The notes under the pieces: generated by a model
Databases searched by the model: none
What the model was told of the DNA's origin: nothing
The model's input: the letters and a program-made list of their open reading frames with translations, nothing else
Translations under genes and position numbers: made by a program
Shown here: piece after piece, positions 4,367 to 7,708 of the stretch
Position numbering within the stretch: the stretch's first letter is position 1
How the letters are laid out: each line of letters opens with the position of its first letter
DNA from: an uncultured Gammaproteobacteria bacterium
GTDB taxonomy: Bacteria > Pseudomonadota > Gammaproteobacteria > Cardiobacteriales > CAKMZF01
Length of the DNA stretch: 33,203 bases
NCBI GenBank assembly: GCA_929200405.1
Contig: CAKMZF010000012.1
Location: 1-33,203, forward strand
Reading direction: 5' to 3'

Positions 4367-5767
4367 TTAGTAGCGATAATGTTCAGGCTTATATGGCCCC
4401 GCTACCGGTACATTGATATAATCTGCCTGATCTTGATTAAGCACTGTCAACTCTACGCCTAATTTTTCTAGGTGTAGTCTGGCCACTTTTTCATCCAACT
4501 GCTTAGGCAAGACATACACTGCATTATTATAGTTCTCACTATGATTCCATAGTTCCATCTGCGCTAAGACCTGGTTGGTAAATGACGCCGACATTACAAA
4601 ACTTGGATGCCCTGTTGCACAAGATAGATTCACCAAACGACCTTCCGCCAACAAGGTAATCCGCTTTCCATCAGGAAATTCAATTTCATCAACCTGTGGT
4701 TTCACATTGTGCCACTTATAGTTGCGCAGCGCTGCAACTTGAATCTCTGAATCAAAATGACCGATATTGCACACGATAGCCCCTGCTTTCATCTCACGCA
4801 TATGCTCAATGGTTATCACATCTTTATTGCCCGTCGTGGTCACAAAGATATCACCTTGACCAGCCGCTGTCTCCATGGAAACAACTTGATAACCTTCCAT
4901 CGCCGCCTGCAGTGCACAAATTGGGTCTATCTCCGTAATCAGCACTCGCGCGCCTTGGGAACGCAAACTCATCGCCGAGCCTTTACCAACATCACCAAAA
5001 CCAACAACCACAGCCACTTTGCCAGCAATCATTACATCAGTTGCCCTTCTAAGACCATCGCCTAGACTTTCTCGACAGCCATAGAGATTATCAAATTTTG
5101 ATTTAGTCACAGAGTCATTCACATTAATCGCTGGGAATGGCAGGCGACCCGTTTTGGCTAGCTCATATAGACGATGAACACCTGTGGTGGTCTCTTCACT
5201 GACACCTTTTATACTATCCCGAATCTTCGCAAACCAGCCTGGGGACTGTTCTAAGCGACGGCGAATAGTATTAAATAGCACAACCTCTTCATCATTGCTT
5301 GGCTTATCTAACACACTCTCATCTTGCTCAGCTTCTGCCCCGATTAAGATATACATGGTCGCATCCCCACCGTCATCTAAGATCATATTACAAGGCGTGT
5401 CATCTCCCCATTGAAAGATTTTATCCACATAATCCCAGTAATCCTCAAGTGTCTCGCCTTTATAAGCAAACACTGGCACGCCTGTTTCAGCAATGGCAGC
5501 TGCGGCATGATCTTGGGTGGAGAATATATTGCAAGAAGCCCAACGCACCTCTGCCCCCAAAGCCGTCAACGTCTCAATCAATACGCCAGTTTGTATTGTC
5601 ATATGCAGACTGCCTGTAATCCGTGCCCCTTTTAGCGGTTGGCTCTCACCAAACTCCTCTCGGAGTGCCATTAATCCCGGCATTTCCGCCTCGGCAATCG
5701 TTAATTCTTTTCGCCCCCAATCAGCCAATGTAATATCGCTGACGATGTAGTTTTCTGTAATATCCAT
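4367..5767 (-). CDS. ahcY: Adenosylhomocysteinase
   Basis: Full-length similarity: [69 protein letters not shown], and C-terminal [10 protein letters not shown]. Confidence 0.98.
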
Positions 5768-5822: not shown

Positions 5823-6983
5823 CTAAGCTTCTGCGCGTAGCAAATCCGCTTTGTCTGTTGCTTCCCAAGTGAAATCTGACAACTCACGCCCAAAATGCCC
5901 GTAGGCTGCTGTTTGCTGATAAATTGGTCGTTCCAGATTAAGCATTTGCAAAATCCCGTAAGGCCTTAAATCAAAATGCGCTTTAACCAATTCTACAATT
6001 CTTGTCTCTGGAACTTTCCCAGTACCAAAAGTGTTAACACTAATCGATGTTGGCTCTGCCACACCTATCGCATAAGACACTTGCACTTCACAGCGGTCAG
6101 CCAGGCCCGCTGCAACAATATTCTTAGCAACATATCTGCCAGCGTAGGCCGCTGAGCGATCTACTTTAGAGGGATCTTTACCAGAGAATGCACCGCCACC
6201 ATGCCTTGCCATGCCACCATAAGTATCGACAATAATCTTACGCCCCGTCAAACCGCAATCTCCCACCGGCCCACCGATAATAAATTGTCCAGTTGGGTTA
6301 ATGTGGTATTTAGTATCTGAATGCAGCCACTTTGCTGGCAACACAGATTTAATCACGTTCTCCATAATCGCTTCTTGCAAAGTTTCTTGGGAGATTTCCG
6401 GATTATGCTGCGTTGAAAGTACTACCGCATCAATAGCGACTATCTCACCTTGACTGTTATAACGGAAAGTTACTTGAGATTTAGCATCAGGACGTAACCA
6501 GTCCAGCTCCCCGCTCCTACGTAACTTCGCCTGTCGCTGCACTAGCTGGTGAGCATAGATAATAGGGGCTGGCATTAAAGCCTCTGTCTCATTGCTGGCA
6601 TAACCAAACATAAGGCCTTGGTCACCAGCCCCTTGCTCTTCTGGGCGACTTCTATCCACACCCTGAGCAATATCTGGCGACTGCTTGCCAATGGCATTGA
6701 TAACTGCGCAGGTATTACCATCAAAACCTAGGTCCGAATGATTGTAACCAATATCCACCACAACTTTGCGAATTAGTTCCTCTAAATCGACATAAGCTGA
6801 GGTAGTCAACTCACCAGCGAGGATTACCATGCCAGTTTTCACCATCGTTTCAACGGCAACACGTGCTTTGGGATCTTGCTTAAGAATTTCATCTAAAACC
6901 GCATCAGAGATTTGATCTGCCAGCTTATCTGGATGACCTTCGGATACCGACTCTGAGGTAAAAAGACTGGATGTAGGTGTCAT
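5823..6983 (-). CDS. metK: S-adenosylmethionine synthetase
   Basis: [81 protein letters not shown]. Start preceded by AAGGAG. Confidence 0.98.
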
Positions 6984-7020
6984 GTCAAAACTCCTTGTAC
7001 CTAATAATTTCTAGGAAAAA

Positions 7021-7117
7021 GGAGCGCCGTTAGAAGGATACAACGTATTGCCGTACAGTTTGAGCCTGGCAGAATATCAGCTAATGCCTCATTATTCCGT
7101 CGCAACGCTCCTCAAAC
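7021..7117 (-). ncRNA. S-adenosylhomocysteine (SAH) riboswitch in the metK-ahcY leader
   Basis: The minus-strand RNA reads GUUUGAGGAGCGUUGCGAC...CUGCCAGGCUCAAAC...UAACGGCGCUCC. It has the SAH riboswitch elements: P1 GUUUGAG/CUCAAAC, GAGGAGCGyUGC, CCAGGCUC, and the pseudoknot arms GGAGCG with CGCUCC within AACGGCGCUC. Confidence 0.93.
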
Positions 7118-7213
7118 TCAACGTGCCTAGTGAGAAACTGGGAGCAACTCAGCTTGGCAAATCCTATGAAGGCGGCTATTCTACTCAAAATTAATTTCAT
7201 TTGCAAAGTAGAT

Positions 7214-7708
7214 ATGTCAGAACTTACCCACTTTACCCAACAGGGTCATGCCCATATGGTCGATGTAGCCGATAAAGTCATCACACATAGAATAGCCACC
7301 GCCAAAGGTAGTATAGAAATGCTTCCTGATACCCTCACTACCTTACAGCAGGGCAATAACAAAAAAGGCGATGTGCTTGGTATCGCTAGACTCGCTGGCA
7401 TTATGGCGGCTAAGCAAACTGCCAACCTTATCCCGCTCTGTCACCCGCTCTCGCTGAATGCGGTTACCATAGAGTTTGATGTGAATGAAACCTCTAGCAA
7501 AATTGATTGCACCGCCACTGTTAAAACAGACGGTAAAACAGGGGTAGAGATGGAAGCACTAACCGCGGTTAATATCGCACTACTCACCATTTATGATATG
7601 TGCAAAGCAGTGGATAAAGGCATGGTAATGAAAAATATTCGCTTAGCCGCCAAATCTGGTGGAAAATCTGGCAATTGGTTACACCCAGATGAAACCAACC
7701 TCGCATGA
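7214..7708 (+). CDS. moaC: Cyclic pyranopterin monophosphate synthase MoaC
   Basis: [71 protein letters not shown]. The conserved N terminus begins at ATG 7214, so the ORF-track GTG start at 7130 is over-extended. Confidence 0.96.

What the first reader, a model, noticed from the sequence alone, without database searches (positions are those of the whole stretch)
7021..7117. SAH riboswitch placed in front of metK rather than directly in front of ahcY
The minus-strand leader carries the SAH aptamer signature (GAGGAGCGUUGC, CCAGGCUC, AACGGCGCUC, P1 GUUUGAG/CUCAAAC, pseudoknot GGAGCG/CGCUCC). SAH riboswitches are known mainly as ON switches for SAH recycling genes such as ahcY. Here the first gene is metK, so SAH would also gate SAM synthesis. 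A single terminator after ahcY suggests both genes are expressed together.
Basis: partly seen in the sequence, partly recalled or inferred. Interest (0 to 1): 0.7.

Follow-up and report, generated by a model that had tools for sequence, protein, structure and literature searches.

The report
SAH riboswitch controlling SAM synthetase metK
A known RNA sensor for the methylation by-product SAH, which normally sits just before the SAH-recycling gene ahcY, here sits before the SAM-making gene metK, with ahcY second; the same layout recurs in scattered gammaproteobacteria although a published survey said it does not occur, so these cells probably raise SAM production when SAH builds up.

Summary
Rfam RF01057 (SAH riboswitch) matches 7015-7119 on the minus strand at 54.5 bits (cut-off 37), the only copy in the genome. 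It lies 31 nt before metK, and ahcY follows 55 nt after metK. A survey puts this in context. Of 162 SAH riboswitches, mostly from an even sample of the class, 148 directly precede ahcY, 119 of those in the order metK-riboswitch-ahcY. Only 10 precede metK, always with ahcY next. A scan of about 85,000 genomes found 21 Rfam-confirmed riboswitch-metK loci, mainly Thiothrix, Thiolinea, Thiofilum and other Thiotrichaceae; six carry a second riboswitch before ahcY. The aptamers covary strongly and the pseudoknot pairs in every row. In the window, the 3' pseudoknot strand and an anti-Shine-Dalgarno strand share five bases. Without ligand that strand hides the metK ribosome site. This predicts a translational ON switch: SAH raises MetK, and AhcY indirectly. 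A 2014 survey states that SAH riboswitches do not control metK. This is a known riboswitch class in a rare, recurrent, apparently undescribed arrangement. SAH binding and switching were not tested.

The parts
7015..7119 (-). SAH riboswitch aptamer (RF01057), with inserts in the P2 loop and in the linker to the 3' pseudoknot strand
   Evidence: cmscan 54.5 bits, E 1.4e-7, full model
7112..7118 (-). P1 5' strand AGUUUGA (pairs with 7063-7057)
7057..7063 (-). P1 3' strand UCAAACU
   Evidence: 6 of 7 P1 pairs covary across 28 metK-first aptamers
7094..7099 (-). P2 5' strand CGGAAU (pairs with 7075-7070)
7070..7075 (-). P2 3' strand AUUCUG
7106..7111 (-). pseudoknot 5' strand GGAGCG
   Evidence: pseudoknot 100% paired in 28 rows
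7021..7026 (-). pseudoknot 3' strand CGCUCC; 7025-7021 are shared with the anti-Shine-Dalgarno strand
7019..7025 (-). anti-Shine-Dalgarno strand GCUCCUU, pairs with 6996-6990 AAGGAGU
   Evidence: hairpin -13.0 kcal/mol, z -2.49, 4 of 200 shuffles as stable
6991..6996 (-). Shine-Dalgarno AAGGAG of metK, 7 nt before the ATG
   Evidence: sequence; mean unpaired probability 0.04 in the ligand-free fold, 0.23 with the pseudoknot strands masked
5823..6983 (-). metK, methionine adenosyltransferase (SAM synthetase)
   Evidence: TIGR01034 626.9 bits
4367..5767 (-). ahcY, adenosylhomocysteinase, 55 nt after metK
   Evidence: TIGR00936 606.6 bits
4323..4342 (-). candidate intrinsic terminator of the metK-ahcY unit
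   Evidence: 8-pair stem, 5 G-C pairs, then TTTTT; number of such sites in the region is at chance level
7178..7206 (-). candidate promoter TTGCAA-17-TAGAAT
   Evidence: consensus match, 9 of 12; such matches are at chance level, weak evidence

Best explanation
The leader is a SAH-class riboswitch that acts as a translational ON switch for metK at the head of a metK-ahcY unit. Without SAH, GCUCCUU (7025-7019) pairs with the metK Shine-Dalgarno AAGGAGU (6996-6990) and blocks initiation. When SAH binds, CGCUCC (7026-7021) is held in the pseudoknot with GGAGCG (7111-7106). Bases 7025-7021 are then no longer available, the ribosome site opens and MetK is made. AhcY, 55 nt downstream with its own GGAG site, would rise with it through co-transcription and coupling or polarity. 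The effect would be to answer SAH accumulation from both sides, removing SAH and replenishing SAM. Shown by computation: aptamer, its position, gene order, covariation, mutually exclusive helices. Inferred: SAH binding, ON direction, co-transcription, physiological purpose.
For: Full-length RF01057 match, single copy in the genome, metK and ahcY identities. In 28 riboswitch-metK loci, 93.4% of cells pair (31.6-46.4% when partners are slid), 13 of 18 pairs have two-sided changes, and the pseudoknot is paired in every row with a G-C to A-U change on both sides in three rows. In the window the Shine-Dalgarno is 96% paired when free; the platform fold has z = -2.49. In 22 of 23 metK-first leaders tested, at least 3 nt of the initiation region pair with the pseudoknot-strand segment, and 22 of 23 have z below -2. 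Thiotrichaceae reach the same result with a different sequence, CUCAGUCAUU against AAUGACUGAG, which is the metK start codon itself. The aptamer-metK-ahcY order recurs in every metK-first locus with enough sequence to tell.
Against: No binding or expression data. Shuffling only the platform upstream of the window's Shine-Dalgarno gave an equally hidden site in 33 of 1000 cases, so the helix in this one sequence is only moderately beyond chance. In the bound-state model the Shine-Dalgarno is only partly free (mean 0.23) because it can pair weakly with early coding sequence. The promoter is not established. Control of ahcY by a translational switch at metK would be indirect. In six other metK-first genomes the aptamer lies about 90-175 nt from metK and the same mechanism is not evident there.
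Confidence: 0.76

Rival explanations
1. The switch is transcriptional or polar rather than translational: SAH changes whether the transcript continues through metK-ahcY, and ahcY is the real target, with metK a passenger.
For: ahcY follows metK in every metK-first locus with enough sequence and is the classical target. In six metK-first genomes the aptamer is about 90-175 nt from metK and a local hairpin uses the pseudoknot strand.
Against: No terminator-like site between aptamer and metK in the window. The competing helix in the window and most relatives covers the metK ribosome site or start codon itself. Six loci keep a separate riboswitch for ahcY while having one for metK, so metK is a target in its own right there.
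Confidence: 0.13
2. The element is an OFF switch: the pseudoknot stem GGAGCG/CGCUCC followed by UUUUU terminates transcription when SAH is bound, so SAH lowers MetK.
For: In the window CGCUCC is followed directly by UUUUU.
Against: The U-run is explained by complementarity to AAGGAG; relatives have CGCUCAGUCAUU or CGCUCAUAAAUA there, without a U-run. The scan calls no terminator there. The class is an ON switch by the literature (own knowledge).
Confidence: 0.03
3. The aptamer has drifted to bind another ligand (SAM, or SAM and SAH alike), as the SAM/SAH class in front of metK in Rhodobacterales does.
For: metK leaders usually sense SAM (PMC2864571).
Against: The Rfam-conserved core (GAGGAGCG.UGC, GCCAGGCUC, AACGGCGCUC) is intact; core columns are invariant across metK-first loci and agree with the ahcY-first loci read. 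RF01727 (SAM/SAH) does not match.
Confidence: 0.05
4. The sequence is a decayed relic or chance match with no function in this genome.
For: The window's order otherwise lacks the element, and the contig is from a 226-contig assembly.
Against: 54.5 bits over the full model, all helices intact, stable mutually exclusive helix, and independent relatives with the same placement.
Confidence: 0.03

Closest known systems
SAH riboswitch (RF01057) in front of ahcY in beta- and gammaproteobacteria
   Same: Same aptamer, core, pseudoknot and, in most, pairing of the pseudoknot 3' strand segment with the initiation region
   Different: First gene is metK, not ahcY; the usual order is metK-riboswitch-ahcY, with metK outside the switch. 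PMC4239095 says SAH riboswitches do not control metK
SahR regulon (DNA-binding SAH-responsive regulator)
   Same: Core regulon includes metK as well as ahcY, metH and metF (PMC4239095): the same regulatory logic
   Different: Protein regulator, not RNA; no relation by sequence
SAM/SAH riboswitch (RF01727) in front of metK in Rhodobacterales
   Same: Small pseudoknotted aptamer directly before metK (PMC2864571)
   Different: Different family, binds both ligands, not detected here
SAM-Chlorobi motif (RF01724) in front of metK-ahcY operons
   Same: RNA element in leaders of metK/ahcY operons (PMC2864571)
   Different: Different family in Chlorobi; no SAM or SAH binding seen in preliminary tests there

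Membership tests
SAH riboswitch (RF01057) | Covariance-model score above the curated gathering score over the full model | tested here: met
   54.5 bits against 37, positions 1-78 of 78
SAH riboswitch (RF01057) | P1, P2 and pseudoknot intact and conserved by covariation | tested here: met
   P1 and P2 90.8% paired with two-sided changes, pseudoknot 100%
SAH riboswitch (RF01057) | Conserved core of J1/2, J2/1 and 3' tail | tested here: met
   cmscan alignment; invariant columns
SAH riboswitch (RF01057) | Located upstream of SAM-cycle genes | tested here: met
   metK then ahcY
SAH riboswitch (RF01057) | Binds SAH and discriminates against SAM | not testable with these tools
   needs in-line probing or ITC
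SAH riboswitch (RF01057) | SAH turns expression on | tested here: inconclusive
   mutually exclusive pseudoknot and Shine-Dalgarno helices predict ON; not measured
SAM/SAH riboswitch (RF01727) | RF01727 covariance-model match upstream of metK | tested here: not met
   only RF01057 reached threshold in the window

The most novel reading that the evidence does not exclude
SAH-sensing RNA has repeatedly been moved or copied from its usual place between metK and ahcY to in front of metK, each time refitted with a new expression platform (start-codon pairing in Thiotrichaceae, Shine-Dalgarno pairing here), giving an RNA-only circuit in which the inhibitory by-product SAH directly raises SAM synthesis; it does by RNA what SahR does by protein.
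Probability: 0.6. Interest if true: 0.52.

Novelty: new variant of a known kind. Interest (0 to 1): 0.43.

Why it matters
[quoted passage not shown] The usual view has metK repressed by its product SAM; here it would be activated by SAH, a control on the methylation ratio. Sister lineages with the riboswitch before ahcY, before metK, or before both give a natural series for studying how a riboswitch changes target. Cultured species (Thiothrix, Thiolinea, Thiofilum) make it testable.

Tried and rejected
Weinberg 2007 and Wang 2008, the original descriptions of the class, are not held, so whether they list a metK case could not be checked. A simple statistic, how much the pseudoknot 3' strand pairs with anything in the platform, did not separate real from shuffled leaders (3 of 25 at p <= 0.05); the fold z-score and pairing with the initiation region did. 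My first bound-state fold failed to apply the constraints and was redone. Seven of the 28 pattern hits in genome contigs had no SAH riboswitch (two carry SAM-I or SAM-II instead) and were dropped. Recent duplication in the tandem loci was rejected: the ahcY-side copies of L168, L171 and L181 are 87-91% alike but only 59-66% like the metK-side copy of their own genome. A search for sub-threshold second copies in ten loci found none. A test look-up of a dummy accession gave nothing.

Full report
CHECK OF THE OBSERVATION. Rfam RF01057 (SAH riboswitch) matches window 7015-7119 on the minus strand over the full model, 54.5 bits against a cut-off of 37, and nowhere else in the 2.64 Mb genome. The next gene on that strand is metK (5823-6983, TIGR01034), then ahcY (4367-5767, TIGR00936) after 55 nt. 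moaC is divergent at 7214. A terminator-like hairpin follows ahcY (4342-4323) and none separates the genes, but such sites are at chance frequency in the region.

HOW UNUSUAL IT IS. RF01057 was searched in 96 relatives (22 positive) and in 369 genomes drawn evenly from the class (154 positive). Of 162 riboswitch places read out, 148 have ahcY as first gene, and in 119 of these metK lies just upstream on the same strand, giving metK-riboswitch-ahcY. Ten have metK first and ahcY second. Of the remaining four, three are in front of metH-like genes and one is at a contig end. So in the usual layout metK is outside the switch, and in the window it is inside.

NAMED RELATIVES. A pattern scan of about 85,000 genomes for aptamer core, 3' pseudoknot strand and the MetK motif EGHPDK at short distance gave 28 loci, of which 21 are confirmed by Rfam. 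They are Thiothrix caldifontis, lacustris, fructosivorans, eikelboomii, Ca. singaporensis and further Thiothrix MAGs; Thiolinea disciformis; Thiofilum flexile; other Thiotrichaceae; a Sulfuriferula MAG; and unnamed gammaproteobacteria. All loci with enough sequence have ahcY second. Six (L162, L168, L171, L173, L181, L189) carry a second SAH riboswitch in front of ahcY. The scan covers only short leaders and may leave out the window's own genome.

EVOLUTION. On a MetK tree the metK-first state needs 7 changes, and well-supported branches force at least 5, against 25 for shuffled labels. It is therefore clustered but apparently not of single origin, provided MetK follows descent; gains, losses and transfer are not told apart. 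In the tandem Thiothrix and Thiolinea loci the ahcY-side copies resemble each other (87-91%) and not their own metK-side copy (59-66%), so the duplication is old and most Thiothrix seem to have lost the second copy. In L175 and L186 the same stretch GGTTTATTTATGAAC stands in front of both metK and ahcY, and their kin G294 (same family and genus code as G389, which is L172) still has metK-riboswitch-ahcY. This looks like the footprint of a rearrangement that copied the ahcY start region to metK (inference). In the window's order only 3 of 32 genomes have an ahcY above the family cut-off, and only the window genome has the riboswitch. Its MetK groups with the order (support 92) but its AhcY does not group with the other two ahcY of the order, so lateral gain of ahcY with the riboswitch is possible but not shown.

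MECHANISM. In 28 metK-first aptamers the structure pairs in 93.4% of cells against 31.6-46.4% when slid, with two-sided changes at 13 of 18 pairs and a fully paired pseudoknot that includes three G-C to A-U replacements. In the window GCUCCUU (7025-7019) pairs with AAGGAGU (6996-6990), the metK Shine-Dalgarno: -13.0 kcal/mol, z -2.49, 4 of 200 shuffles as stable. Its mean unpaired probability is 0.04 free and 0.23 with the pseudoknot strands masked. Bases 7025-7021 belong to both helices, so they exclude each other. Shuffling only the upstream platform gave an equally hidden site in 33 of 1000 cases. In Thiotrichaceae the same strand reads CUCAGUCAUU and pairs with AAUGACUGAG, the metK start codon and first codons; in L172, L175 and L186 CUCAUAAAUA pairs with UAUUUAUG. 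Of 23 metK-first leaders tested, 22 have z below -2 and 22 pair the initiation region with the pseudoknot-strand segment. Among 132 ahcY-first leaders the latter holds in 91. Different sequences thus reach the same exclusive pairing, which predicts a translational ON switch. Six metK-first genomes (G033, G190, G392, G168, G374, G375) have a longer leader, about 90-175 nt, with a local hairpin on the pseudoknot strand; their mechanism is not resolved.

WHAT IT WOULD DO. By established pathway knowledge, SAH inhibits methyltransferases, AhcY removes SAH and MetK makes SAM. Raising both restores the SAM to SAH ratio. Because the switch acts at metK translation, AhcY would follow only by coupling or polarity. 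This is inference.

COMPARISON WITH WHAT IS KNOWN. PMC4239095 (199 proteobacterial genomes) states that SAH riboswitches, unlike SahR, do not control metK and lie upstream of ahcY in all genomes studied; Thiothrix is not named in its main text. SahR has metK and ahcY in its core regulon, so the logic has a protein precedent. SAM/SAH riboswitches precede metK in Rhodobacterales and SAM-Chlorobi precedes metK-ahcY operons, but these are other families. No held paper joins SAH riboswitch and Thiothrix. The founding papers could not be read.

VERDICT. A genuine SAH-class riboswitch in a rare but recurrent placement that contradicts a published generalisation. Function is predicted, not measured.

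Noticed in passing
L162, L168, L171, L173, L181, L189: Two SAH riboswitches in one metK-ahcY unit, one before each gene; in L168, L171 and L181 the ahcY-side copies form an old, separate lineage.
   Followed up: partly
L175, L186 (and less clearly L172), metK and ahcY starts: Nearly identical initiation regions (GGTTTATTTATGAAC) before both metK and ahcY, a possible rearrangement footprint; ahcY keeps the complement of the platform strand although the aptamer is now more than 1 kb upstream.
   Followed up: partly
L236 (G033), L233 (G392), L234 (G190), L235 (G374), L230 (G375), L231 (G168): Long-leader metK-first class: SAH aptamer about 90-175 nt from metK with a strong local hairpin on the pseudoknot strand (GCGUUCAUUAUUAACAGGUAACUGAUAGUAAUGGAC and similar), mechanism unclear.
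   Followed up: partly
window order, G002 and G029 against G000: Only 3 of 32 genomes of the order have an ahcY above the family cut-off and the three AhcY do not group together; ahcY may have been gained more than once.
   Followed up: partly
L165 27-85 (+) and L183 1508-1601 (-): SAM-II (RF01726) and SAM-I riboswitches near the metK-start pattern in a Muribaculaceae and a Clostridiales MAG, picked up by the same pattern scan.
   Followed up: no
L068, L096, L108: Second SAH riboswitches placed directly in front of a methionine synthase gene (metH-like, by reading the translation).
   Followed up: partly
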